DNA from: an uncultured Candidatus Saccharibacteria bacterium
GTDB taxonomy: Bacteria; Patescibacteriota; Saccharimonadia; Saccharimonadales; Saccharimonadaceae
Reading direction: 5' to 3'
NCBI GenBank assembly: GCA_947305705.1
Contig: CAMZEB010000001.1
Coordinates: forward strand, 248,001-312,000
Length of the DNA: 64,000 nucleotides
The position numbers and the translations under genes were made by a program. Below, one piece after another: positions 41,370 through 53,222 of the stretch. Position 1 is the first letter of the stretch. Each line of letters opens with the position of its first letter. The notes under the pieces were generated by a model that did no database searches, was not told the DNA's origin, and was given only the letters and a program-made list of their open reading frames with translations.

Positions 41370-41903
41370 ATGGCAGATTTTAACCAGATTTTGGATCCTG
41401 GTGATTACAAAGAAGGTTCAATTAACGTTGTAATTGAAATCCCAACTGGCAGTAACCATAAGATTGAGTGGGATCGCAAGCGCGCTTGCTTTATGCTTGA
41501 TCGCATTGAGCCAATTGCATTTGCAAAGCCTTGCAACTATGGCTTCATTCCACAGACGCTAGATGAGGATGGCGATGAGCTCGATGTGCTCGTTATAACC
41601 GATCAGCCACTTACGACTGGTATCTATCTCAAGGCTCGCGTGCTTGGCGTGATGAAGTTTGAAGATGACGGCGAAGTTGACGATAAGATTATCGCTGTCG
41701 TTGAAGATGATCGCAACAATGGCGATGCTGTGAAGACGCTTGAAGATTTGCCAAAGCGCTGGTTCGAACAGGTTGAATTCCACTTCAATCACTACAAAGA
41801 TTTGAAGAAACCTGGTACGACCCACGTCAAAGGATTCTTCGGTGCAGATGAAGCAGAGAAGGTTATCGAAGCTTCAATTGAGCGTTGGCAGAAATCTAAC
41901 TAA
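41370..41903 (+). CDS. ppa: Inorganic pyrophosphatase
   Basis: A 177-aa family I soluble pyrophosphatase that hydrolyses pyrophosphate from biosynthetic reactions. VVIEIPTGSNHKIEWD is the N-terminal signature. YGFIPQTLDEDGDELDVLV contains the metal-binding aspartates. DDKIIAV and KRWFEQVEFHFNHYK are also typical. AAAGGAG SD 6-7 nt before the ATG, and a strong terminator follows. Confidence 0.97.
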   Translation: MADFNQILDPGDYKEGSINVVIEIPTGSNHKIEWDRKRACFMLDRIEPIAFAKPCNYGFIPQTLDEDGDELDVLVITDQPLTTGIYLKARVLGVMKFEDDGEVDDKIIAVVEDDRNNGDAVKTLEDLPKRWFEQVEFHFNHYKDLKKPGTTHVKGFFGADEAEKVIEASIERWQKSN

Positions 41904-41920
41904 TTTGTAGTTAAAACGCG

Positions 41921-41954
41921 AAAAGTCAGGATTTGTTCCTGACTTTTTGTTTTT
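41921..41954 (+). terminator. Intrinsic terminator after ppa
   Basis: AAAAGTCAGGA / TCCTGACTTTT, an 11-bp stem followed by T-rich DNA. Confidence 0.9.
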
Positions 41955-42010
41955 AAGGTTCGCTTTATAAAACAGGGGTAAATTGGTATCATAAGTAATG
42001 AGGACGCTTT

Positions 42011-42670
42011 ATGAGAATATTGTATGTAGAAGATGAAAAATTTCTAGCAGATGCCGTTAAACACAATTTGGAAAAACAGGGTTTCGATGTGGATCACGCG
42101 GCGGATGGGGAAGATGGACTCGATAAGGCGGTGCGCGATATTTATGACTGTGTCGTGCTTGATATTATGTTGCCGAAATTGAGCGGTATCGAAATCTTGA
42201 AACGGATGAGAGAGAAGAAGGTTAATACGCCTGTAATTATGCTTTCGGCTTTGTCGGAAGTGGAAGATAAGATTCAGGGTTTGGATGCGGGGGCGGACGA
42301 TTATTTGGCAAAGCCGTTTAAGACGGCAGAGTTGGTTGCGCGTATAAATGCATTATTGCGTCGCCCAGCGAATATTAAAGAGGAAATTTATGCGTTTGGT
42401 GATATAAAATTTGATGCAGTTCAGAAAACGCTGAACGGTGTTTCTCTGACAGCAAAAGAAGCTAGTATTATCCACGAATTAATAAAAGCGAATGGTAGAT
42501 TGATTCAGAAAGAGTATTTGCTGAATAAGATTTGGGGCGAAGAAGCGTTTGGTGAAGATAATTATATTGAAGTGTATATGTCGAGGATTCGTAAAACGAT
42601 GCGTGAGCTCGGGCTGAAAACGAAGATTAAGACCTCGCGGGGTCTAGGATATAAGCTTGTGGAAGGGTGA
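42011..42670 (+). CDS. OmpR-family response regulator
   Basis: 219 aa. Receiver domain with acidic pocket (YVEDE), phospho-acceptor Asp in VVLDIMLPKLSG, switch Ser in LSALSE and Lys in LAKPFKTAEL. Winged-helix DNA-binding domain at the C-terminus (DNYIEVYMSRIRKTMRE, SRGLGYKLVEG). It is paired with the kinase that follows (stop TGA overlaps into TGATATG) and with an ABC exporter, so it likely controls that exporter. Confidence 0.95.
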   Translation: MRILYVEDEKFLADAVKHNLEKQGFDVDHAADGEDGLDKAVRDIYDCVVLDIMLPKLSGIEILKRMREKKVNTPVIMLSALSEVEDKIQGLDAGADDYLAKPFKTAELVARINALLRRPANIKEEIYAFGDIKFDAVQKTLNGVSLTAKEASIIHELIKANGRLIQKEYLLNKIWGEEAFGEDNYIEVYMSRIRKTMRELGLKTKIKTSRGLGYKLVEG

Positions 42671-42671
42671 T

Positions 42672-43598
42672 ATGTTTAGAAGGCTACGAAACAAATTTAT
42701 CTTAACGAATTTATTGACGACGACGGCGATAATTATCGTGGCATTTACCTCTGTTTTTATTGCGAACGCAATTAGCGCGAAGCGGCCGAGACCAATGCCG
42801 GCAAGGATGCCTGGCGAGAGCTCCGAGATGCGAGAAGTAATAGATAGAGAGATACAAAACGATCGCGATGAGAGGCTGGGGAGCCTTGCGTTAACTTTGG
42901 TGTTGACGGGAATTTCGATTGAATTGCTGGTGTTTTTGGTGAGCTATTTTATTGCTGAAAGTGCGATAAAGCCGGTGAAAGAGGCGTATGAGAAGCAGCG
43001 AATCTTTATTGCTAATGCATCTCATGAGCTAAAAACTCCGATTGCGGCGGTGCAGGCGAATTTTGAAGCGTTGGGTGCAACGGAACAGCCTTGGGTTAAT
43101 AATATTGAAAATGAATTGAATCGAGCAAGTAATTTGGTGAGTGATTTACTGACGCTTGCGAGGACAGATGGGCGTACGGCGGAGGCGCCGAAAAAAGATA
43201 CTGATATTGCGAAGGTTGTGCGAAATAGGACACAACTAATACAGGCGCGCTTAGGGGATAAGAAGTTGGAGTTGGAGTTGCCGGAAAAGGCAGTGATCAA
43301 TCTAAATGCAGCAGATTTTACACAAGTGTTAGATATTTTGCTCGACAATGCTGTTAAATATTCGGAGAAAAAAGTTGTAGTGCGGCTTGATGGAAAGCGA
43401 TTGATAGTCGAGAATGACGGGAAAACGATTGCGAAGGATAAAATAGATAAAATATTTGATCGTTTTTATCAGACAGATAAGACGGCGGAAGGATCGGGGC
43501 TTGGGCTTGCGATTGCGAAGGCGATTGCTGTTCAGAACAAGTGGAATATTCAGGTTGAATCTGATAAAAAATTGACTCGGTTTTCAGTTTCGTTTTAA
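42672..43598 (+). CDS. Sensor histidine kinase
   Basis: 308 aa from ATG 42672, just after the regulator stop, with a GGAAGGG SD. Two membrane helices (residues ~10-31 and ~80-102) enclose a short extracytoplasmic loop rich in Pro/Met/Arg (RPRPMPARMPGES). H-box ASHELKTPIAAVQ, N-box DILLDNAVKYSE and G-box GSGLGLAIAKAI are intact. The loop is short (~48 aa), as in intramembrane-sensing kinases that watch an ABC transporter. Confidence 0.93.
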   Translation: MFRRLRNKFILTNLLTTTAIIIVAFTSVFIANAISAKRPRPMPARMPGESSEMREVIDREIQNDRDERLGSLALTLVLTGISIELLVFLVSYFIAESAIKPVKEAYEKQRIFIANASHELKTPIAAVQANFEALGATEQPWVNNIENELNRASNLVSDLLTLARTDGRTAEAPKKDTDIAKVVRNRTQLIQARLGDKKLELELPEKAVINLNAADFTQVLDILLDNAVKYSEKKVVVRLDGKRLIVENDGKTIAKDKIDKIFDRFYQTDKTAEGSGLGLAIAKAIAVQNKWNIQVESDKKLTRFSVSF

Positions 43599-43643
43599 GT
43601 ATTGAAACGATAATTTAGTTAAGAATAAACAGAAAGGAACAGA

Positions 43644-45164
43644 ATGTTTAAAAACATGCTGAAGAGGAGTTGGCTGTCGATTCATCGAAAGCTTGGGCGG
43701 ACGATTGTTTTGACGCTAATCTTCTTTATGATGGCGAATTTGGTGCTCGCCGCAATAACTATTAAGACCGCCGTGGGGGCGCAGATGGATTATGCGAAGT
43801 CTACGCTTGGTGGCAAAGTGACGGTTCAGGCCGATATGGACTCGATTCGCGAGTCGCAGAAAAAGGAGATGGAGTCTGGAACGGATCGCAAAGAGATGTT
43901 TGGCAAGATGGAACGTCCGCAAGTTAGCGTGACGACGGCGAACTCGATTGCGGCGTATACGGACTATGTGAAAGATTATTCATATGAAGTGTCGGCGACG
44001 GCGAATTCGAATGAGTTGGAAGTAGTTGAAACTTCGAGCAAATTCCAGGGTATGGGTGGTCCTGGCGGGATGAGTTTTCCTGGTATGACGAAGACGAGTG
44101 ATGCGGAGCTAGACGGTGATATCACGATTAGTGGTGTTAATGCTTATGCTTATATTTCTGGGGTGCAGAATGAGACTTTGAAGATAAAAGAGGGCGATTA
44201 TTTCGATGAAGATACGAATGATAGCGCTTTGATTTCGTACGAATTTGCCGAGCTTAATGGCTTGAGTGTGGGCGACGAATTTAAGATTAAAAATATTTAT
44301 TCAACAAGTTCCGTGAAGCTGAAGGTGATTGGCATTTATGATTCGAGTGAAGAGCGTGCGAATGCGAATACGGTATATATGAATACGGCGACGGCGGCAA
44401 AGTTTTTGAACGATGACGATTATAACGACGGGAACTACGATGTTTCGAATGTGAATTATTATATGGTCAATTCGGAAAAAGCTGATGAGTTCGTGGCGCT
44501 GATTAACGAGAAATTCCCTGAGCTAGCAGAGAATAAGATGAAGATTTCGGTCGATACGAGCGAATATGACGCGGTGGCAAGTTCGGTTGAGAGTGTGGGC
44601 AGTTTTGCGACGACGATTCTTGTGATTGTGATCGTGGCGGCTGTGATCATCGTTACGCTGATTGTGACTTTGAACGTGCGTGATCGCCGCTATGAAATGG
44701 GCGTGCTATTGTCGCTTGGTGCAAATAAGGTTAACGTTGTGGCGCAGATTGCGACAGAATTAATAATAGTCGGTACGCTTGGGTTCGCGTTGGCATCATT
44801 GTCTGGCACATTTTTGGCGAAGGCGATGGGGCAGGGTATTATTGATTCGCAGACGAAGTCTTCGCAGCAACAACAGGAGAAGAACTTTGGCCGGCCGACG
44901 AGTGGCAGCCGTTCGTCTAGTAGGAGTGGAAATATGCCAAGTATGTCGGATGGAATGCCGAGTATGCCAGGGCAGGATACGAATATGAAACAGTTTATGG
45001 CGAATGGCCGTAATCAGGAAATTAAGCTTGATATCAATGCAACGCCGATTGACTTCTTGCTACTATTCGTGACGGGGTATGTCGTGATTATCTTGGCGCT
45101 GATTTTACCATCGGTGAATATTATGCGCTATCAGCCGAAAGAAATCTTAGCGGGGAAGGAGTAG
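43644..45164 (+). CDS. FtsX/MacB-type ABC permease
   Basis: 506 aa. One N-terminal helix (IVLTLIFFMMANLVLAAITI), a large extracytoplasmic domain (~45-320), then three helices. VRDRRYEMGVLLSLGANK is the FtsX coupling motif. An unusual insert between helices (residues ~405-455) is rich in Ser/Met/Pro/Gln (GNMPSMSDGMPSMPGQD) and probably exposed. It is preceded by AGAAAGGAA SD and followed 2 nt later by its ATPase. Confidence 0.92.
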   Translation: MFKNMLKRSWLSIHRKLGRTIVLTLIFFMMANLVLAAITIKTAVGAQMDYAKSTLGGKVTVQADMDSIRESQKKEMESGTDRKEMFGKMERPQVSVTTANSIAAYTDYVKDYSYEVSATANSNELEVVETSSKFQGMGGPGGMSFPGMTKTSDAELDGDITISGVNAYAYISGVQNETLKIKEGDYFDEDTNDSALISYEFAELNGLSVGDEFKIKNIYSTSSVKLKVIGIYDSSEERANANTVYMNTATAAKFLNDDDYNDGNYDVSNVNYYMVNSEKADEFVALINEKFPELAENKMKISVDTSEYDAVASSVESVGSFATTILVIVIVAAVIIVTLIVTLNVRDRRYEMGVLLSLGANKVNVVAQIATELIIVGTLGFALASLSGTFLAKAMGQGIIDSQTKSSQQQQEKNFGRPTSGSRSSSRSGNMPSMSDGMPSMPGQDTNMKQFMANGRNQEIKLDINATPIDFLLLFVTGYVVIILALILPSVNIMRYQPKEILAGKE

Positions 45165-45166
45165 AG

Positions 45167-45820
45167 ATGAAAAATAATGTTTTGAAAGTGGAAGGTTTGG
45201 AGTATTCGTACCAGAATGCGTCAGGGACGCAGAAGGTGCTCAAAGGAATCGATGCAGAGTTTGAGGCTGGCAAGATGTATGCGATTGTAGGGGAGAGCGG
45301 CTCGGGCAAGACGACGTTCTTGTCGCTCATCTCGGCGCTCGATAAGATTCAGGAAGGTGATATTCGTTATAACGGCAAGAGCGTGCGCAAGATTGGCGGT
45401 TCGGAGTTTCGCCTGAAATATGTAAATATTGTGTTCCAATCGTATAACTTGATTAAGTATATGACGGCGCGCGAGAATGTGCAGGTGGCGATTGATTTCG
45501 ACAAGCGCAAAGTGTCGCCGGACAAGTACCTCGCGCAGGTTGGTTTGACTGAGGAGGAGGGTGGACGCTTAGTGAATAAGTTGTCTGGTGGCCAGCAACA
45601 GCGCGTCGCGATTGCGCGGGCGATTGCGTCGAATTCGCCGATTATTGTGGCGGATGAGCCGACCGGTAACCTCGATGAGGATACAGAAGAGAAGATTATC
45701 GAGATTTTCCGCGAGTTGGCGCACAAGGAAGATAAGATTGTGATTATCGTGACGCACTCGAAGCGCGTGGCGGAGCATGCGGATGAAGTATTGAGGCTGA
45801 GAAGGGGAGTGCTGAGCTAA
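45167..45820 (+). CDS. ABC transporter ATPase (LolD/MacB type)
   Basis: 217 aa. Walker [12 protein letters not shown]-loop VFQSYNLI, signature LSGGQQQR, Walker [12 protein letters not shown], and the H-loop THSKR. It is a minimal single-domain ATPase, without the basic tail of the paralogue at 22138. Last gene of the regulator-kinase-permease-ATPase cluster, which probably exports or resists a membrane-active compound. Confidence 0.95.
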
Positions 45821-45850
45821 ACGCGCTATAACAAAACTATTTAAAAAGGG

Positions 45851-45879
45851 TCCTCTAGCTTTTAGCTAGAGGATTTTTG
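45851..45879 (+). terminator. Intrinsic terminator of the ABC cluster
   Basis: TCCTCTAGCT-TTT-AGCTAGAGGA stem followed by TTTTTGG. Confidence 0.92.
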
Positions 45880-45948
45880 GGTTTCGGTAACCGAATGAGT
45901 AAGATAAAATCTCTGTTAACTAATTTCTTCGCTAGAGATAAAGGATGC

Positions 45949-45954
45949 TATAAT
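45949..45954 (+). promoter_or_regulatory. Extended -10 promoter of the structured RNA
   Basis: TGC-TATAAT. Its expected start (about 45961) coincides with the first base of the inverted-repeat RNA. No clear -35. Confidence 0.65.
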
Positions 45955-45960
45955 AAAAAT

Positions 45961-46111
45961 GCTACAACATTACAATCATAATAGAGTCTAACAGTTTTGC
46001 GGACTCTCCAAATAAAAGGCGGAAAGCGGCCCTGCTGCAGTCTTAGTTTTTCTTTTATTTGGAGAGACTCAGGATTGTTAAAGTTGTAGCGACTCGGTAG
46101 GGTCGCTTTTT
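45961..46111 (+). ncRNA. Highly structured RNA upstream of the restriction-like cassette
   Basis: About 150 nt with its own promoter and terminator. Outer stem GCTACAACATTACAATC (45961) pairs with GATTGTTAAAGTTGTAGC (46073-46090). A 15-bp perfect inner stem CTCTCCAAATAAAAG (46004-46018) pairs with CTTTTATTTGGAGAG (46052-46066), with a ~33-nt apical loop containing CGGCCCTGCTGCAG. An alternative hairpin AGAGTC...GACTCT competes for the same bases. It ends in AGCGAC-N8-GTCGCT plus T5. No known Rfam family is recognised, and a 6S-like shape or an attenuating leader are both possible. Confidence 0.55.
46088..46111 (+). terminator. Terminator/attenuator of the structured RNA
   Basis: AGCGAC-TCGGTAGG-GTCGCT followed by TTTTT, 34 nt before the first cassette gene. 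Its 5' strand begins in the last bases of the RNA outer stem, so the two structures may compete. Confidence 0.75.
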
Positions 46112-46144
46112 GCTTTAGAGCAAAGCGATTCGAACATAGTCGCT

Positions 46145-46822
46145 ATGCAAGAGGATACTAAAAGGTCAACTAAAAGGGAAGCACAAGCACGACAAACTCT
46201 CGAGAAGGGTATTAAATCTCGTGAGCGCGTTCGTGATGCAGGCGAAGTCTTCACGCAGCCGCGCGAAGTGAAAGCCATGTGCGATCTCTGTGAGCCTACG
46301 ATTTCTGAGATTGACAAAAAAGTCCTCGAACCAAGTTGCGGTAATGGCAACTTCCTAGTTGAAATTCTCGAACGAAAATTACAAAAGACAAAGAAAAATA
46401 AATACAAAATCCTCATTGCGTTGAGCAATATTTACGGGGTAGATATTGCGCGAGATAACCTTGAGGAAGCACGTGATAGGATGAAAAATATCGTGCTGGA
46501 TTATTTGGCTGGTGAAGAGACTCCTGCCGAATTTTTGATGGCTATGAATGCAATTCTGAAGGCGAATATCTGTTATGGGAATATGCTGACAGGCCGTAAA
46601 AAGATAGATTTGATTAATTGGATCCCTGATGGGAATGGTGGTTTTGAACTAGAAAAATGGAACTTTGCTGAGATTGAGAAAAGGCGCGAAGAGTCTCGAG
46701 TGGCAAAGATTGATGAATTAGAAAAGATTTCTAATGAACTACTACATCCTCCGCTAAAGCTTCCAGATAAGCCGAAGCCTAGACCGAAACAAAAAGTCGA
46801 AAAGCAAGCAAGTCTGTTTTAG
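46145..46822 (+). CDS. Methyltransferase-like subunit of a restriction/defence cassette
   Basis: 225 aa. VFTQPREVKAMCDL, then VLEPSCGNGNFLVEIL (SAM motif I, PSCGNGNF at 63-70) and IYGVDI (motif II) are those of N6-adenine DNA methylases. However, the catalytic (N/D)PPY motif is absent, and the last ~40 residues are Pro/Lys-rich (KLPDKPKPRPKQKVEKQASLF). It may bind SAM but need the next protein for catalysis. There is no SD, and the ATG lies just after a small hairpin. It is the first gene of a four-gene operon. Confidence 0.75.
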   Translation: MQEDTKRSTKREAQARQTLEKGIKSRERVRDAGEVFTQPREVKAMCDLCEPTISEIDKKVLEPSCGNGNFLVEILERKLQKTKKNKYKILIALSNIYGVDIARDNLEEARDRMKNIVLDYLAGEETPAEFLMAMNAILKANICYGNMLTGRKKIDLINWIPDGNGGFELEKWNFAEIEKRREESRVAKIDELEKISNELLHPPLKLPDKPKPRPKQKVEKQASLF

Positions 46823-46834
46823 GGAAAGGAAGAA

Positions 46835-48355
46835 ATGAGCGAACAAGTAAATAATCTATTAAACAAAGGCTATAACCCAGATGTTTTGGAGTGCTTGGCG
46901 AACCTTTCAAACGATGAGGTGTTTACGCCTCCAAAAGTCGTAAATAATATGCTTGATATGTTCCCGGAGGAGATTTGGAGTAATCCGGATTTAACATTCC
47001 TAGATCCGGCCTGCAAAACGGGGGTATTCTTGCGCGAGATTGCGAAACGTCTAATTGTGGGGCTAGAAGAGAAAATCCCCGATTTACAGGAGCGCCTTGA
47101 TCATATTTTTCATAAACAACTATATGGTATTGCGATTACGGAATTAACAGCGTTGGCGAGCAGAAGGAGTTTATATTGTAGTAAATATGCGGACGGGAAG
47201 TATTCGGTAAGTAAATTTAACAATCCGAATGGCAACATACGATTCGTGTCTATGAATCATGCGTGGGTGAATGGGAAATGTAAATATTGTGGGGCGAGCG
47301 CTGAGCAGTATCAGCGGGCGTCGGAGCTAGAAACGCATGCTTATGAATTTATACACACTAATAATCCGGAGGAGATATTTGGAATGAAATTTGACGTTAT
47401 TATTGGAAATCCGCCATATCAGCTGAGTACTGGCGGCGCTCAAGCTCAGGCGACTCCTATATATAATAAGTTTGTTGATCAAGCGAGAAAACTTAGGCCT
47501 AAGTACCTATGTATGATTACTCCAAGTAGATGGTTTACGGGTGGTTTTGGCCTCGATTCATTCAGAAAAACAATGCTAGAAGACGATAGTCTTCGGATAA
47601 TTCATGATTATCTAGATGCGTCGGTTTGTTTTCCGGGTGTCGAAATAAAAGGCGGTGTTTGTTACTTCCTATGGAAAAGAGACGATAAGGGCAAGTGTAT
47701 GGTTAATACATATAGAGGCGAACTGCTTTCTTCTAGTATGGAGAGAGATTTGCTTGAAGATGGTCTAGACTTTTTTATCCGATATAATGAAGCAGTTCCG
47801 ATATTCAAGAAGGTTAAGATATTCAATGAAAAGTCTTTGACGGAGATTATTAGCTCGCAGAGACCTTTTGGTCTTCCGACAAATTTTGATGGATTTATAA
47901 AAGATAAAGACGAAACGCACTCTATAAAGATATACGCTAACAAAAAAGTTGGATATGCGCCATTGTCGGTAATTACTAAGAATAGTGGTCTGATACCGAA
48001 ATATAAGGTATTGACTCCAAAGGCAATCGGGTCTGGCGATAGTCGTACGGATTGGGTGAAGCCGATTTTGGCAGAGCCAGGGAGTGCTTGTACGGAAACA
48101 TATATTATCCTTGGGGCATTTGACTCTAGGGAGGAGGCGGAAAACCTGATTTCATATACGCAGACAAAGTTTTTTCATTTTATGCTTACTTTAAAAAAGA
48201 ATACACAGGACGCATTGTCGAAAGCATATGTCGCAGTTCCTTTACAAGATTTTTCAGAATCATGGGCTGACGATAAATTGTATAAAAAATATAACTTATC
48301 TCCGGATGAAGTATCATTTATTAATGACATTATTACTCCAGCGGAGGATAGATGA
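46835..48355 (+). CDS. Eco57I-type N6-adenine DNA methyltransferase
   Basis: 506 aa. EVFTPPKVVNNML, then FLDPACKTGVFL (motif I, ~55-66), a CKYC-containing insert at 149-152 that may bind zinc, and IIGNPPYQLS (motif IV, NPPY at 192-195). The C-terminal half is an Eco57I/TaqI-like target-recognition region (ITPSRWFTGG, VEIKGGVCYFLW). It methylates adenine in a specific DNA site. Preceded by GGAAAGGAAG SD. Its stop overlaps the helicase start (ATGATG). Confidence 0.88.
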   Translation: MSEQVNNLLNKGYNPDVLECLANLSNDEVFTPPKVVNNMLDMFPEEIWSNPDLTFLDPACKTGVFLREIAKRLIVGLEEKIPDLQERLDHIFHKQLYGIAITELTALASRRSLYCSKYADGKYSVSKFNNPNGNIRFVSMNHAWVNGKCKYCGASAEQYQRASELETHAYEFIHTNNPEEIFGMKFDVIIGNPPYQLSTGGAQAQATPIYNKFVDQARKLRPKYLCMITPSRWFTGGFGLDSFRKTMLEDDSLRIIHDYLDASVCFPGVEIKGGVCYFLWKRDDKGKCMVNTYRGELLSSSMERDLLEDGLDFFIRYNEAVPIFKKVKIFNEKSLTEIISSQRPFGLPTNFDGFIKDKDETHSIKIYANKKVGYAPLSVITKNSGLIPKYKVLTPKAIGSGDSRTDWVKPILAEPGSACTETYIILGAFDSREEAENLISYTQTKFFHFMLTLKKNTQDALSKAYVAVPLQDFSESWADDKLYKKYNLSPDEVSFINDIITPAEDR

Positions 48356-51147
48356 TGTCTAACAAGATTATAGATTTAACTCGACCTGAGATTGAGCCTA
48401 AAATTTATGCATATGAACTCCCGGGAATTCATGACGGTTATTTAAAGATTGGATATACCGAGCGCGATGTTAGGCGGCGCGTTGATGAACAGACGCACAC
48501 TGCTAGTGTTACGCCAAGAATCGTGTTTCAGCATTCTGCTGTCAGAGATGATGGTTCAGTGGTGTCAGATAAAGATATCCATCGAGTATTGCGCGACTGG
48601 GGAAAACATCAACTGAATGAGGGGACTGATAATAATGAATGGTATGAATGCACGTTAGATGATGTCGAAAGAATTCTCAATGCTTTGCTCAATGGTGGCT
48701 CTTTGAATCGTGTTAGGAACTTAGATTTTCGCCCTCGCCAAGAGCAGGAACGTGCCGTCGCGAAAACTAAGGCTTACTACGAGTCAATGAAGGAAAGCGA
48801 TCCGGAATCGCGGCCGAAGTTTTTATGGAACGCAAAGATGCGTTTTGGCAAAACTTTCGCAAGTTATGAGCTTGCGAAGACCATGGATTTTAATCGTATC
48901 CTCATTTTGACGTTTAAGCCTGCCGTTGAGTCTGCCTGGCAAGAAGATCTTGAGACTCATTGCGATTTCGAAGGTTGGAATTTCGTGTCAGTAAAGAAGG
49001 CTGAATTACAAGGGCTCACTTTGAACCAGCTTTATGAGAAAACATATAAAGGCAAGCCAATAGTCGTGTTCGGTTCTTTCCAAGATTTACTTGGCACTAC
49101 GCCTAATGGCGGTATTAAACCAAAACACGAATTTATTAATAGCGAAGCATGGGATTTAGTTATTTTCGATGAATATCATTTTGGTGCATGGCGCGATAAT
49201 GCCAAAAAATTGTTCGCTGGCGCATCCGATAGCGTCGATGAAGAATCGGACGATGTCGTAGATTTTGATGCAGAGGCTTATCAGAAATATGAAGCAGGAA
49301 ATGCATACAACGAGTCATTTCTTCAAATCGATACGCAGTATTATCTATTTCTTTCTGGCACGCCATTTCGTGCGATAAATAGTGGCGAGTTTATTGAAGA
49401 GCAGATTTTCAACTGGACTTATTCTGACGAGCAATACGAAAAAGAGCATTGGGATGAAAGCCATCATGGCGAGCCGAATCCCTATCTTTCTTTGCCGAAA
49501 ATGTGCATGATGACCTATAAGTTGCCGGAGGCTATTCGCAGGGTTGCAGAGCAGGGTCAGTTCAATGAATTTGATTTGAATGTGTTTTTCTCAGCAAAAA
49601 CTGAAACAGGTCGGGCGGAAGATGCGCAGTTTGTTTATAAAGACGAAGTTCAAAAATGGCTAGATTTGATTCGCGGTGGCTACGAAGAGGCTTATGTAGA
49701 TAATCTCAGGCAGGGCAAGGATAAACCGCCGATGCCGTTTTCGCATGGTCCGTTACTTAGAACTCTTACGCATACATTTTGGTATTTGCCGAATGTGAAT
49801 AGCTGTTTCGCGATGGCGAATTTACTGAAAGAGCCGCAAAACACTTTTTATCACGATTATAAAGTGAATGTTTGCGCCGGCCCTGGCGCTGGTGTTGGTT
49901 TAGCCGCATTGAAACCTGTTCAAGAATCGATGCATGAACCGCTGAAGTCTAAAACTATCACCTTGTCCTGTGGTAAATTAAATACCGGCGTGACAGTAAA
50001 ACCGTGGTCGGGTGTGTTTATGTTGCGCAATTTGAAATCGCCGGAAACGTATTTTCAGACAGCCTTCCGCGTTCAGTCGCCGTGGGTGATGAAAGACGAA
50101 GAAGGGCGTGACGTGATTATGAAGGAAGTTTGTTATGTCTTTGACTTTGCGCTTGATAGGGCATTGAGGCAGATTTCTGAATATTCATGTAAGCTGAATG
50201 TTGAGGAGCAAAATCCAGAGAAGAAGGTCGGCGAGTTTATTCATTTCTTGCCGGTGTTGGCTTATGACGGTAGCTCGATGAAGGAGATATCGGCAAGCGA
50301 GATTCTCGATATGACGATGTCTGGTACGTCGGCGACTTTACTTGCGCGTCGTTGGGAATCTGCGCTACTTGTTAACGTCGATAACGATACGCTTCGCCGC
50401 ATCATGAATGATCCACGTGCCTATGAAGCAATTATGAGCATTGAGGGCTTCCGTGCACTCGGCGACAATTCAATAGAAACTGTGATTAATAAATCTGAAG
50501 CCGTAAAGAAAGCAAAAGCCGAAAATGTTGAGCGAACTCCTTCCGAGAAGAAAGAGCTAAGTGAGGAAGAGAAGAAGACGAAGTCACTTCGTAAGCAAAT
50601 TCAGGAAAAACTCATCAAGTTTGCTACGCGTATTCCGATCTTCATGTATCTTACCGATTATCGTGAGTTGACCTTGAAAGAAGTAATTACTAAGCAGGAG
50701 CCGGATTTATTCAAAAAGGTAACCGGCATTAACGTATCGGATTTTGAATTACTATGCGAGATAGGTGTGTTCAATGCATCGCTGATGAACGAAGCCGTCT
50801 ATAACTTTAAAAGATATGAGGATGCAAGCCTAAGCTATACGGGTATTAATCTTCATACGAACGACGCTCAAGTTGGCGGTTTCGATGAGGTTATTACTCG
50901 CGAAGAGTTTTATGATCGACCGGAAACTAATATTACAGTAGAGAACGCTGTTCCGATCGAAGAAGCGGCTGAGGAGGACGAGGCGGAAAAACTTGAAATC
51001 ACGAAGGGTACCATTGTGCATTCGGAGAAGTTCGGCCAAGGGCGAGTGGTGACGATGAAAGATGATGTTATCTGGGTTGCGTTCAAGGATGGGTACAAGA
51101 CGTTCCGATTCCCGGATGACGTTGAGAATGGTTTTTTGCAGTTATAA
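48352..51147 (+). CDS. GIY-YIG nuclease / SF2 helicase fusion (restriction subunit)
   Basis: 931 aa. Residues ~15-115 form a T5orf172-type GIY-YIG domain (KIYAYELPG, YLKIGYTERDVRRRVDEQ, EWYEC with the expected catalytic Glu). FRPRQEQ (127-132), MRFGKTFAS (Walker A, 163-171), VIFDEYHFGAW (DEYH 273-276), LFLSGTPFRAI and FQTAFRVQSPW are superfamily 2 helicase motifs. The end (VHSEKFGQGRVVTMKDDVIW) resembles the UvrD C-terminal Tudor-like fold. It probably translocates on DNA and cleaves it when the site is unmethylated. Confidence 0.88.
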   Translation: MMSNKIIDLTRPEIEPKIYAYELPGIHDGYLKIGYTERDVRRRVDEQTHTASVTPRIVFQHSAVRDDGSVVSDKDIHRVLRDWGKHQLNEGTDNNEWYECTLDDVERILNALLNGGSLNRVRNLDFRPRQEQERAVAKTKAYYESMKESDPESRPKFLWNAKMRFGKTFASYELAKTMDFNRILILTFKPAVESAWQEDLETHCDFEGWNFVSVKKAELQGLTLNQLYEKTYKGKPIVVFGSFQDLLGTTPNGGIKPKHEFINSEAWDLVIFDEYHFGAWRDNAKKLFAGASDSVDEESDDVVDFDAEAYQKYEAGNAYNESFLQIDTQYYLFLSGTPFRAINSGEFIEEQIFNWTYSDEQYEKEHWDESHHGEPNPYLSLPKMCMMTYKLPEAIRRVAEQGQFNEFDLNVFFSAKTETGRAEDAQFVYKDEVQKWLDLIRGGYEEAYVDNLRQGKDKPPMPFSHGPLLRTLTHTFWYLPNVNSCFAMANLLKEPQNTFYHDYKVNVCAGPGAGVGLAALKPVQESMHEPLKSKTITLSCGKLNTGVTVKPWSGVFMLRNLKSPETYFQTAFRVQSPWVMKDEEGRDVIMKEVCYVFDFALDRALRQISEYSCKLNVEEQNPEKKVGEFIHFLPVLAYDGSSMKEISASEILDMTMSGTSATLLARRWESALLVNVDNDTLRRIMNDPRAYEAIMSIEGFRALGDNSIETVINKSEAVKKAKAENVERTPSEKKELSEEEKKTKSLRKQIQEKLIKFATRIPIFMYLTDYRELTLKEVITKQEPDLFKKVTGINVSDFELLCEIGVFNASLMNEAVYNFKRYEDASLSYTGINLHTNDAQVGGFDEVITREEFYDRPETNITVENAVPIEEAAEEDEAEKLEITKGTIVHSEKFGQGRVVTMKDDVIWVAFKDGYKTFRFPDDVENGFLQL

Positions 51148-51161
51148 GAGAAAGGATAAAA

Positions 51162-51929
51162 ATGGCAAATAACAAGAGCGGCGTAATATATGTATTGACG
51201 AATCCGTCATTTCCGGAATATGTAAAGATTGGCTATGCGGATAATCTCGAGAAAAGGTTGACAGATTTAAACCGAAGCGAATGCTTACCTTTTGCCTTTC
51301 GCGCATACTGCGTCTATGAAGTTGATGGGCGATTAAAAGATAAAGACGTTCATGCGTTGATTGATAAAATTAATCCCGAGCTACGCGCGATAGAGACATT
51401 TGATGGGAAGCCTCGGGTGCGAGAATTTTATAACATTTCAGCCGAGGATGCTTATGAGATTCTCTATAGCATAGCCACAATAAGTGGGACTGTTGGTCGG
51501 CTGAAATATATTACTCCGGAAGGTCATGATATATTAGACGAAAAAATAGCATTGGATATACAGGAAAACGGAAGAGTTCAGTATACAGAAGAAGATCATA
51601 TAATGCATAGTTCCGCTACGACAAAGCGTCTTTATATGGTGATTCGCGAGAAAATGCTCGCATTAGGTGATATAACGATTGAGCCAAAGAAAGAATATGT
51701 CGCGTTTAAGAAAAAGAATAATGTTTGCGATATCGAAATTCAGCGCAGCAAGCTGAAAATTACTGTCAATTTGCGCCATGGAGCTATTGATGATCCGGCA
51801 GGAATTGCAAGAGATATTTCGAATGTCGGCCATTGGGGAAATGGTGATTACGAGATACACTTAACGGATGAAAGTATGCTTCCTGAAACACTTGCAATTA
51901 TTATGCAATCTTATCGTGCGTCGAGATAA
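51162..51929 (+). CDS. GIY-YIG (T5orf172) protein with DUF5655-like C-terminus
   Basis: 255 aa. GVIYVLTNPSFPEYVKIGYA with REFYNIS further on is a T5orf172-type GIY-YIG nuclease domain (residues 6-100). Residues ~185-255 (EIQRSKLKITVNL, then DDPAGIARDISNVGHWGNG) match the DUF5655 type often attached to predicted restriction enzymes. AGAAAGGA SD. It follows the helicase by 14 nt and is probably the last gene of the cassette; a second nuclease of the same fold in one operon is unusual. Confidence 0.82.
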   Translation: MANNKSGVIYVLTNPSFPEYVKIGYADNLEKRLTDLNRSECLPFAFRAYCVYEVDGRLKDKDVHALIDKINPELRAIETFDGKPRVREFYNISAEDAYEILYSIATISGTVGRLKYITPEGHDILDEKIALDIQENGRVQYTEEDHIMHSSATTKRLYMVIREKMLALGDITIEPKKEYVAFKKKNNVCDIEIQRSKLKITVNLRHGAIDDPAGIARDISNVGHWGNGDYEIHLTDESMLPETLAIIMQSYRASR

Positions 51930-51978
51930 AAGTAGCGATTACTGGCGATCTCCTGATTTATTATAATCACAACTCTCG

Positions 51979-51993
51979 GCGGCATTGTGCCGC
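51979..51993 (+). other. GC-rich hairpin after the cassette
   Basis: GCGGCA-TTG-TGCCGC, perfect 6-bp stem without a T-run. It may mark the 3' end of the cassette mRNA. Confidence 0.4.
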
Positions 51994-52017
51994 ATCATAA
52001 TCTATCTTCAAATCTGC

Positions 52018-52023
52018 TATAAT
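52018..52023 (+). promoter_or_regulatory. Extended -10 (TGCTATAAT) for the SPFH operon
   Basis: TGC-TATAAT, 35 nt before ATG 52059, with GGAGG SD between. Confidence 0.7.
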
Positions 52024-52058
52024 AAAGGCATAAGAAACTTAACGGAGGAAATCCCAGA

Positions 52059-53222
52059 ATGGCATTTCTAAAAGCTTTCGGCGGTGCTATCAGTGGTGCA
52101 TTTGCCAACCAGTGGTTGGAATATATGGCTCCACCAAAGACCATGACCGATCATACCCTAATTGCTCGCGCAGTTCCTGTGAAGGTTAACGGTAGCGAAA
52201 ACAACGATGGCGAGGAGCAGGCTAACCTCATTTCTAACGGTTCTAAGTTCATGGTTCCAGAAGGTACCTGTCTTATCACTGTAGAGAACGGCGCTATCGT
52301 CAGCGTTGTTGCGGAACCAGGTGGCTACACCTACACGACTGAGAACATCCCAGAAGCTCGTTCGATGTTTGCTGGTGATGGCTTCTTTGCTTCTACCTTC
52401 GGTACTAGCTTCAAGCAGTTCAAGTTCGGTGGTCAGCCAGGTAATCAACAGCAGGCTTACTATGTAAACCTCAAGGATATTGCAGGTTTGCCATATGGCA
52501 CTGCGAACCCAATTCGCTATAACGATAGCTATTATGGCGGTGTTAAACTTGCTGTCACAAGTAATGGTACATATACTATAAAGGTTGTTGATCCAATCTT
52601 AATGTTCAAAAATCTTATTCCAGCTGACATTACATCTGGCCAAGGTCGTTCACAGTTTGATCTTGGTGAAGGTGATGGCGGTGTAGAGGATAGCCTCTTC
52701 TCCGGCTTCGTCGGTTCGCTTGCTGTAGCACTTCAGAAGTTTTCTAGCGGTGGAAAATCGATTGAAGATATTCAAGGTGGTACGACTGAGTTTGCAAAAG
52801 ACGTAAACGAAGCAGTTGAACAGAGTTATCAATGGGGTACGAAGTATGGTCTCGCAATCGTAAACGTTCAGCCACGTAGCGTCGACTGGGATCCATCTTC
52901 AGCTGCGATTGTCGAGAAGTTCACGACTGGTATGATGATGCAGGGCAGTATTGGCAATGCATATGCACAGACTCAGGTTGCCGAAGGCTTCAATGCTGCT
53001 GGTAACAATGCCGGAACAAATGGCATCATGGGTATGGGCTTTGGTATGGGCGCTACGGGCGCTGCAGGCATGAACGTCATGAACAATGGCGGCGGTGTCA
53101 ATCCGATTGCTCAGCAAATTCAGCAACAACAAGCTGCCTCACAACAGCCAGTGGCTCCAGCTGCGCCAGAAGCACCGGCTGCTCCTGAAGCTCCAACAAC
53201 ACCTGAAACTCCAGCGGAGTAA
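52059..53222 (+). CDS. SPFH/YdjI-like (stomatin-prohibitin family) protein
   Basis: 387 aa. AFLKAFGGAISGAFANQWLEY at the start and the SPFH-like body (FMVPEGTCLITVENGAIV, YTIKVVDPILMFKNLIP) match the YdjI/virion-core-protein group. The C-terminus is Gly/Met/Asn-rich then Gln/Pro/Ala repeats (APEAPAAPEAPTTPETPAE). SPFH proteins form membrane-associated rings. In Bacillus ydjI works with zinc-ribbon YdjG and a PspA-like protein in envelope stress. The zinc-ribbon genes follow here, but no pspA-like gene is visible. Confidence 0.82.
   Translation: MAFLKAFGGAISGAFANQWLEYMAPPKTMTDHTLIARAVPVKVNGSENNDGEEQANLISNGSKFMVPEGTCLITVENGAIVSVVAEPGGYTYTTENIPEARSMFAGDGFFASTFGTSFKQFKFGGQPGNQQQAYYVNLKDIAGLPYGTANPIRYNDSYYGGVKLAVTSNGTYTIKVVDPILMFKNLIPADITSGQGRSQFDLGEGDGGVEDSLFSGFVGSLAVALQKFSSGGKSIEDIQGGTTEFAKDVNEAVEQSYQWGTKYGLAIVNVQPRSVDWDPSSAAIVEKFTTGMMMQGSIGNAYAQTQVAEGFNAAGNNAGTNGIMGMGFGMGATGAAGMNVMNNGGGVNPIAQQIQQQQAASQQPVAPAAPEAPAAPEAPTTPETPAE

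What the first reader, a model, noticed from the sequence alone, without database searches (positions are those of the whole stretch)
46145..51929. Four-gene restriction-like cassette with two GIY-YIG proteins and a split methylase
Seen: a methylase-like protein with motif I but no NPPY, an Eco57I-like methylase with NPPY and a CKYC insert, a GIY-YIG/SF2 helicase fusion with a UvrD-C-like end, and a GIY-YIG/DUF5655-like protein, all on one strand and tightly packed. Known: GIY-YIG and helicase proteins occur in restriction systems. Inference: this is one operon forming a defence system in which nuclease and translocase are fused and a second nuclease of the same fold is added. I cannot assign it to a named type.
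Basis: partly seen in the sequence, partly recalled or inferred. Interest (0 to 1): 0.75.

Follow-up and report, generated by a model that had tools for sequence, protein, structure and literature searches.

The report
DrdVI-type restriction operon with RNA leader
Three of the four genes are a known kind of bacterial anti-phage restriction system (the DrdVI type), a fourth adds a DNA-cutting protein of a sort seen beside other restriction systems, and the operon starts with an apparently undescribed folded RNA that also precedes other restriction genes in these tiny bacteria.

Summary
In detail: four intact, tightly packed plus-strand genes. The first three (M1, M2, R) are not an unnamed type: they match, subunit by subunit and in order, the DrdVI 'split' Type IIG restriction-modification (R-M) system (38/47/52% identity), whose M1+M2 methylate GCAGCC. 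R fuses a GIY-YIG nuclease to an SF2 motor; M2 is a complete adenine methylase; M1 is a methylase-like partner without NPPY. The fourth gene (GIY-YIG + DUF5655) is an accessory: no copy beside 14 of 14 other M1-M2-R or M2-R loci examined, but the same architecture stands beside Type I R-M in three other Saccharibacteria MAGs, and nuclease-DUF5655 proteins lie near R-M genes in 11 of 18 Patescibacteria loci (0 of 10 stand-alone DUF5655 genes, tested less deeply). Upstream of the finding lies the most novel part: a 154-nt structured leader with a promoter box and a terminator-like end, one of 34 matches found in Saccharibacteria. Its apical loop pairs with the terminator arm (10-13 bp in 26 non-redundant members, covarying), and the first gene behind it is a DNA methylase or methylase-like in 10 of 31. 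No Rfam match was found. Core known; fourth gene a new variant; leader probably a new regulatory RNA.

The parts
45949..45954 (+). -10-like box TATAAT, 4 nt before the leader RNA
   Evidence: A -10-like box lies within 18 nt upstream in 27 of 32 leader members (exact TATAAT in 20) against 27 of 800 control windows
45959..46112 (+). Structured leader RNA: outer stem P1 45961-45968 / 46083-46090, long inner hairpin, terminal hairpin
   Evidence: CM R1/R2 hits; fold z-score -5.31 for 45960-46114; 51 of 51 consensus pairs kept in 4 of 4 sequences, window included
46026..46037 (+). Apical-loop segment (mimic of the terminator 5' arm), pairs with 46095-46106
   Evidence: 12-bp run in the window; mean 12.08 bp in 26 non-redundant members against 4.25 in shuffled loops; covarying
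46088..46112 (+). Intrinsic-terminator-like hairpin AGCGAC..GTCGCT with T-tract, 32 nt before the M1 ATG
   Evidence: (consensus scan, 9 such sites against 5.4 expected in the region; not proof of function)
46145..46822 (+). M1: methylase-like subunit, motif I without NPPY
   Evidence: 38% identical to M1.DrdVI over 158 aa; no NPPY in 18 of 18 sequences
46835..48355 (+). M2: Eco57I-type adenine methylase with CxxC insert and C-terminal target-recognition half
   Evidence: Pfam Eco57I 9.5e-35; 47% identical to M2.DrdVI; C-terminal half variable
48352..51147 (+). R: GIY-YIG (T5orf172) nuclease fused to SF2 motor
   Evidence: 52% identical to DrdVI R; Y19, K32, G34, R43, E96 and motifs MRFGKT, DEYH, SGTPF, FQTAFR conserved; PADLOC REase_MTase_IIG model 1.1e-37
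51162..51929 (+). G4: GIY-YIG (T5orf172) plus DUF5655 accessory protein
   Evidence: Pfam, PADLOC PDC-S57 5.8e-58 and PDC-S18 6.6e-33; model pLDDT 83, fold matches

Best explanation
A horizontally acquired DrdVI-family split Type IIG R-M operon in a Saccharibacteria genome, with an accessory nuclease and an RNA leader. Shown by sequence: M1-M2-R match DrdVI in order and content; all frames are intact; the specificity half of M2 has diverged. Inferred from DrdVI and MaeIV: M1+M2 form a methylase that marks adenine (m6A) in a short asymmetric site; R joins or binds at unmethylated sites, its SF2 motor moves along or remodels DNA with ATP, and its single GIY-YIG site cuts. Inferred only: G4 supplies a second, separately aimed GIY-YIG active site (its DUF5655 half has a YdhG/YjbR-like fold) and is a plug-in nuclease that different R-M types recruit. 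Inferred: the leader is transcribed from its own promoter and controls read-through into the operon by choosing between helices that hold the terminator arm; the signal is unknown.
For: DrdVI match and order; DrdVI methylates GCAGCC, m6A, IIG, methylase genes cloned in E. coli (whole text read); MaeIV is placed in a 'split methylase/RM' family similar to DrdVI, GCACY (passage). M1-M2-R or M2-R also on plasmids, in phage records and in 4 of 5 IMG/VR contigs found. Active-site and motor residues conserved. M2: same-genus relatives 0.68-0.95 identical in 20-residue blocks 1-200 but 0.12-0.67 in 241-480, while R blocks are 0.41-0.95. Site: a variable gap between ppa and an SPFH gene, 22-175 nt wide in 4 of 16 same-genus regions and holding other restriction-type genes in 3; GC 41.9% against 45.9% for the window. 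DUF5655-nuclease/R-M linkage 11 of 18 against 0 of 10. Leader.
Against: No activity, methylome or expression data; recognition site unknown. M1 is only 38% identical to M1.DrdVI. ResIII scores just below Pfam's cut-off. The R model is poor (pLDDT 60). G4 could be a passenger gene. The leader's switching is not shown: both competing helices keep the terminator arm paired, so what gives read-through is unclear; and more terminator-like sites than expected were found in the region as a whole (9 against 5.4).
Confidence: 0.87

Rival explanations
1. A true four-gene system in which G4 is an obligatory partner of M1-M2-R.
For: Same strand, 14-nt gap with a purine-rich ribosome-binding-like stretch by eye; both nucleases are T5orf172 proteins.
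Against: No G4 match beside 14 of 14 other M1-M2-R or M2-R loci examined (L021 has only about 120 nt and L067 about 580 nt after R, so they say little); its full-length relatives sit beside Type I R-M genes.
Confidence: 0.12
2. A decayed R-M locus kept only for its methylase, as proposed for DnmA-YeeB-YeeC of B. subtilis (PMC9973331, passages).
For: A helicase gene and a T5orf172 gene beside a methylase form an apparently non-functional relic in B. subtilis; DrdVI-like relics are reported in Bibersteinia.
Against: All four frames are full length without stops, and residues of nuclease, motor and methylase are conserved.
Confidence: 0.1
3. It works like a Type ISP enzyme divided into subunits: two complexes translocate towards each other from two sites and cut where they meet.
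For: Asymmetric sites in the family (GCAGCC, GCACY); SF2 motor, nuclease, methylase and TRD; fused R-M2 versions exist. Type ISP make-up and behaviour: PMC4666363 (start of abstract in listing).
Against: Nuclease fold is GIY-YIG, not Mrr; three chains instead of one; DrdVI is filed as IIG. The cut position was seen in no call.
Confidence: 0.35
4. The leader element is a DNA recombination site or element end (an attC-like or MITE-like inverted repeat) and not a regulatory RNA.
For: Long inverted repeats upstream of varied accessory genes; the RNA model also scores weakly on the opposite strand (25.4 bits and less).
Against: A promoter box at a short distance in 27 of 32, a T-tract after the helix in 32 of 32, and a gene start 12-56 nt downstream on the same strand in 31 of 32; the loop-to-terminator-arm pairing covaries.
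Confidence: 0.1

Closest known systems
DrdVI (Deinococcus wulumuqiensis 479, plasmid pDrdVI; split Type IIG, GCAGCC)
   Same: M1-M2-R, same order and strand, near-abutting genes; R 52%, M2 47%, M1 38% identity; M1 without NPPY, M2 with NPPY and CxxC; R with GIY-YIG and SF2 motor
   Different: No G4 match there and no C-terminal tail of R beyond residue 851; recognition halves of M2 differ; the leader model had no hit on L016
MaeIV (Methanococcus aeolicus PL15/Hp; GCACY)
   Same: Described as a split methylase/RM family similar to DrdVI (passage)
   Different: Sequence not compared here
Type ISP (LlaGI, LlaBIII)
   Same: SF2 motor, nuclease, methylase and target-recognition region in one functional unit (abstract starts in listing)
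   Different: Single chain and Mrr-family nuclease there; three chains and GIY-YIG here
DnmA-YeeB-YeeC (B. subtilis)
   Same: Methylase, helicase and T5orf172 protein in one cluster (passages)
   Different: There the T5orf172 domain is on a separate protein from the helicase and the methylase is related to MmeI; not aligned here
PADLOC candidates PDC-S57 and PDC-S18
   Same: G4 matches PDC-S57 over residues 5-138 and PDC-S18 over 139-251
   Different: G4 joins the front of one to the back of the other; PADLOC gives no description for either
Terminator-type riboswitches and T-box leaders (recalled as a class)
   Same: Structured 5' leader ending in a terminator before the gene
   Different: No Rfam family reached its gathering score at the leader in the window or in ten member loci; a pairing between apical loop and terminator arm is the defining feature here

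Membership tests
DrdVI split Type IIG R-M | Three genes M1-M2-R in this order on one strand | tested here: met
DrdVI split Type IIG R-M | Each subunit homologous | tested here: met
   R 864 aligned columns at 52%, M2 527 at 47%, M1 158 columns (of a 225-residue protein) at 38%
DrdVI split Type IIG R-M | R = GIY-YIG nuclease fused to a translocase, active residues kept | tested here: met
   description of DrdVI
DrdVI split Type IIG R-M | M1+M2 give m6A at one short asymmetric site | not testable with these tools
   needs a methylome
DrdVI split Type IIG R-M | Restriction activity | not testable with these tools
   needs protein or a restriction assay
Type ISP | Nuclease, motor, methylase and TRD in one polypeptide | tested here: not met
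   separate ORFs
Type ISP | Mrr-family nuclease | tested here: not met
   T5orf172/GIY-YIG instead; Mrr named as the Type ISP nuclease
Type I R-M | Separate HsdS specificity subunit | tested here: not met
   no Methylase_S match up to E 1 in the four proteins
R-M-linked nuclease-DUF5655 proteins (G4) | Nuclease domain fused to C-terminal DUF5655 | tested here: met
   Pfam
R-M-linked nuclease-DUF5655 proteins (G4) | Gene near an R-M operon | tested here: met
   window; 11 of 18 Patescibacteria loci with a 296-351 aa frame against 0 of 10 stand-alone DUF5655 genes
Known Rfam regulatory RNA | Match at gathering score over the leader | tested here: not met
   best sub-threshold hit in the window is a snoRNA family at E 0.68

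The most novel reading that the evidence does not exclude
The operon is headed by a member of an undescribed cis-regulatory RNA family of Saccharibacteria. A 109-154-nt leader, transcribed from its own promoter, folds into an outer stem P1 and a hairpin whose apical loop forms a covarying 9-13-bp pseudoknot with the terminator arm, and so decides whether the gene behind it is transcribed. R-M genes of several unrelated types (DrdVI-like, EcoRI-type methylase with a GmrSD-like partner, N6/N4 Type III-like methylase, C5 methylase) stand behind this one RNA switch, which would delay or gate restriction in these episymbionts. G4 would in addition be a plug-in nuclease shared between R-M types.
Probability: 0.65. 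Interest if true: 0.8.

Novelty: new variant of a known kind. Interest (0 to 1): 0.64.

Why it matters
The named finding turns from an unassignable defence cassette into a member of the little-studied DrdVI family, so its methylation motif becomes directly testable. The accessory GIY-YIG-DUF5655 protein points to a set of exchangeable nucleases (PD-(D/E)XK-like or GIY-YIG) that sit with Type I, II, III and IV restriction genes; no paper in the searched library holds the word DUF5655. The leader RNA would be the larger gain: R-M genes must be held back when they enter a new host, often by controller proteins (recalled), and one RNA switch in front of several R-M types would be a new answer, in a bacterial group with few known regulators (recalled).

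Tried and rejected
UvrD-C-like tail of R: no Pfam hit, no significant PDB sequence hit; left open. Whole-R structure: AlphaFold2 with 10 rows gave pLDDT 60, so no fold search was made with it. PDB sequence search with R (none up to E 1) and M2 (one hit at E 0.086). G4 in viral contigs: 3 pattern matches, none a relative. The 15-nt inverted repeat as a repeated DNA element: one place in 45 genomes as an exact pattern. Leader fragment of 23 nt in viral contigs: none. Rfam at E<=1: one implausible snoRNA. First counting script for the leader stopped on a pattern error after seven members and was replaced. In the P1 count some members were read in a wrong register; one search repeats it with the best register. 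G4 as an obligatory subunit: disfavoured by synteny. attC/integron reading of the leader: kept as a rival.

Limits of the counts. Leader matches G653:C70 and G834:C2 were not fetched (32 of 34 matches examined). The complementary run was capped at 13 bp. The four M1 leaders are close relatives, so 10 of 31 is not 10 independent cases. L186's downstream frame (53 aa) is cut by the end of the fetched stretch. Several gene starts behind leaders were read by eye or set mechanically. DUF5655: of the 29 short-frame rows only 10 were fetched; those 10 were tested by BLAST against my R-M reference set and by eye, not by Pfam, and for the 7 unlinked loci of the 18 only three neighbours were given to Pfam, so the test was deeper on the positive side. 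G254 (L076) was left out of the 18/10 counts because its frame is cut by the contig end (it lies beside two DNA methylase genes). L063 and the G005 C3 contig appear to be the same contig (both 15,947 bases) and are counted once. Loci with R but without a plain M1-M2-R or M2-R array (L010-L012, L014, L015, L020) and short stretches (L007, L040) are not in the 14. The one-sided Fisher value for 11/18 against 0/10 (about 0.0015) was worked out by hand.
Full report
What is there. Four intact ORFs on one strand: M1, M2, R and G4, with junctions of 12 nt, a 4-nt overlap and 14 nt. Pfam and PADLOC give: M1, weak methylase matches; M2, Eco57I methylase; R, T5orf172 (GIY-YIG) plus a ResIII-type motor; G4, T5orf172 plus DUF5655. 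One PADLOC model, REase_MTase_IIG PDLC03626, matches R (residues 145-777) in its front part and M2 (18-483) in its back part: the same system also exists as an R-M2 fusion.

Identity. A search of plasmids with R brought up pDrdVI of Deinococcus wulumuqiensis 479, whose annotated order is DNA methyltransferase - Eco57I methylase - helicase. Alignments: M1 38% over 158 aa, M2 47% over 527, R 52% over 864. The source paper (PMC6430315, whole text) lists M1-2.DrdVI, GCAGCC, 6mA, Type IIG, with the methylase genes cloned in E. coli. [quoted passage not shown] The core of the finding is therefore a known kind.

Anatomy. M1 has an AdoMet motif I (LEPSCGNGNF, by eye) but no NPPY in 18 of 18 sequences; M2 has NPPY in 15 of 15 and a CxxC in 15 of 15. 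M2 is thus a complete methylase and M1 a conserved partner that looks non-catalytic. In R, Y19, K32, G34, R43, E96 and the motor motifs are near-invariant. Among three same-genus operons (L086-L088) M2 is 0.68-0.95 identical in the 20-residue blocks of 1-200, but 0.12-0.67 in the blocks of 241-480, as low as against other phyla, while R blocks are 0.41-0.95. That is the pattern of a target-recognition region under diversification, so the motif cannot be read off the relatives.

Distribution. In 100 genomes (own included) R is found in 12, M1 in 11, G4 in 7 at E<=1e-3, but G4 over most of its length only in the own genome and one other. M1-M2-R loci were seen in G034, G021, G005, G053, G035 (L086-L090), on plasmids of Deinococcus, Variovorax and Mycobacteroides and in two phage records; M2-R or M1-M2-R in 4 of 5 IMG/VR contigs. 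A fused R-M2 with M1 occurs in G030, G042 and G057, and an Enterococcus plasmid has the pieces in separate frames. No G4 match lies beside 14 of 14 such loci. The site is a variable gap between ppa and an SPFH gene: of 16 same-genus regions, 4 have only 22-175 nt there (L095, L101, L102, L104) and 3 hold other restriction-type genes (L092 Eco57I-type methylase piece, L093 EcoRI-type methylase plus GmrSD_N/HNH, L094 GIY-YIG plus Schlafen-type helicase); not all 16 show both flanks.

The fourth gene. The single scan of named genomes gave 14 loci; three carry the whole GIY-YIG-DUF5655 architecture, all Saccharibacteria MAGs and all beside hsdM-hsdS-hsdR (L052, L053, L063; Pfam for L052). DUF5655 more often follows a PD-(D/E)XK-like front (NucS_C and HSDR_N_2 hints below cut-off). 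In Patescibacteria, of 18 loci with a 296-351 aa frame carrying DUF5655, 11 lie within 4.5 kb of R-M genes: Type I in L072, L074, L078, L139 and L144 (inside the operon in L072 and L074), a fused methylase-specificity gene in L073, AlwI-type nuclease with methylase in L137, EcoRI-type methylase with GmrSD-like gene in L138 and L140, Type III-like in L079, GmrSD in L071. Two further same-genus loci outside this count, L080 and L081, have the gene between hsdM and hsdS. Of 10 stand-alone short DUF5655 genes, 0 lie near R-M genes, but these were tested by BLAST and eye only. Seven of the 18 show no R-M neighbour (L075, L077, L141, L142, L143, L145, L146), some on short contigs. The G4 model (pLDDT 83) has no Foldseek match below E 0.001 (best 0.026); by VIA-align its GIY-YIG half resembles Slx1 (Z 7.6, 3.1 A, 101 residues) and its DUF5655 half YdhG (Z 9.9, 2.6 A, 103), YjbR-type proteins and the DNA-binding domain of phage T4 MotA (Z 7.5, 3.5 A, 97). 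These values allow only a fold suggestion: a DNA-contacting module is possible, not shown.

The leader RNA. Comparing upstream regions showed that 168-182 nt before M1 are 89% identical in G032, G030 and G042, with divergent flanks, although G030 and G042 carry the fused variant. Window 45960-46114 folds at -56.2 kcal/mol, z -5.31; all 51 consensus pairs are kept in the four sequences, 8 of them with one-sided changes, none broken, none changed on both sides. A covariance model (R1) found 9 of 295 family genomes; a second (R2, nine sequences) found 32 matches in 26 of 392 order genomes, all in the same family. With two R1 matches in G491 this makes 34, of which 32 were examined. (a) A -10-like box lies within 18 nt upstream in 27 of 32, against 27 of 800 control windows. 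(b) A T-tract follows the last helix in 32 of 32. (c) A gene starts 12-56 nt downstream in 31 of 32 (exception L180). (d) A segment of the apical loop is complementary to the terminator 3' arm over 9-13 bp (cap 13). In 26 non-redundant members the mean is 12.08 bp and the minimum 10, against 4.25 in shuffled loops (1.8% reach 9). Swapping arms between members gives 7.7 bp on average, with 26% at 10 or more against 91% for own arms; so sequence conservation explains part, and positions 7-12 carry the covariation (position 9: GC 8, GT 6, AT 6, TA 3, TG 2, CG 1, paired in 26 of 26). This pairing is not part of the structure of either model, so it is separate support. (e) P1 pairs at 11.62 of 12 positions on average against 8.65 in the shuffled control, but P1 is in the models and is therefore biased. 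Model R1 also scores weakly on the opposite strand of some members, as expected of long inverted repeats.

What the leader precedes. First genes by Pfam or homology: M1 four times, EcoRI-type methylase three times (L177, L190, L197), N6_N4 methylase twice (L188, L195), C5 methylase once (L193), so 10 of 31 are DNA methylases or methylase-like; a GIY-YIG protein three times (L179 just below the cut-off, L183, L200); the other 18 include a glycosyltransferase, a TM2 protein, an oxidoreductase-like protein and many without a Pfam match. Rfam found nothing at the leader (one search gave only a snoRNA at E 0.68). Paper searches with terms for leader RNA, attenuation, riboswitch or structured RNA together with restriction-modification or Saccharibacteria showed no such element in their listings (the last listed 12 of 64 papers); one Patescibacteria review searched for riboswitch, restriction and noncoding RNA speaks of riboswitches only as a tool (PMC11665869, passages). 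How it switches is inference: the outer stem overlaps the 5' arm of the local terminator hairpin by two bases (GC), and the apical loop competes for its 3' arm. Both pairings end next to the T-tract, so which state reads through, and what signal decides, is open.

Verdict. Finding: real; core known (DrdVI family), fourth gene an R-M-linked accessory in a rare architecture, leader probably new. Score 0.64, carried mainly by the leader and the nuclease-DUF5655 linkage rather than by the four-gene cassette as first read.

Noticed in passing
window 41370-52059: The gap between ppa and the SPFH gene is a variable hotspot; in the window it also holds response-regulator, histidine-kinase and ABC transporter genes (42011-45820), which had no match in the 16 same-genus regions fetched.
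   Followed up: partly
L010, L011, L012 (G042, G030, G057): Variant DrdVI-like operons in which R and M2 are one protein (open frames of 1381-1419 aa) behind M1.
   Followed up: partly
L089 8973-9380; L090 9760-10299 and 11824-12324: Small extra genes (136, 180 and 167 aa, the last zinc-finger-like) between M1, M2 and R in two Saccharibacteria operons; no Pfam family above its cut-off.
   Followed up: no
L014 6001-8559 (Corynebacterium crudilactis pCRULAC2): An R homologue (54%) with no M1 or M2 match within about 6 kb on either side.
   Followed up: no
window 50905-51147: R carries a C-terminal tail beyond residue 852 that is shared with same-genus relatives and two gut phage records but missing in DrdVI; strands predicted.
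   Followed up: partly
L178 2120-2188: A DUF3800-IX RNA (Rfam RF02968) lies on the other strand about 150 nt upstream of one leader member.
   Followed up: no
L082 408-1112: A GIY-YIG protein 84% identical to the front 111 residues of the L052 GIY-YIG-DUF5655 protein but without DUF5655: sign of domain swapping.
   Followed up: no
L094 2300-4030: In the same hotspot of another genome, a protein joining GIY-YIG to a Schlafen group 3 helicase domain: another GIY-YIG-helicase fusion of a different make.
   Followed up: no
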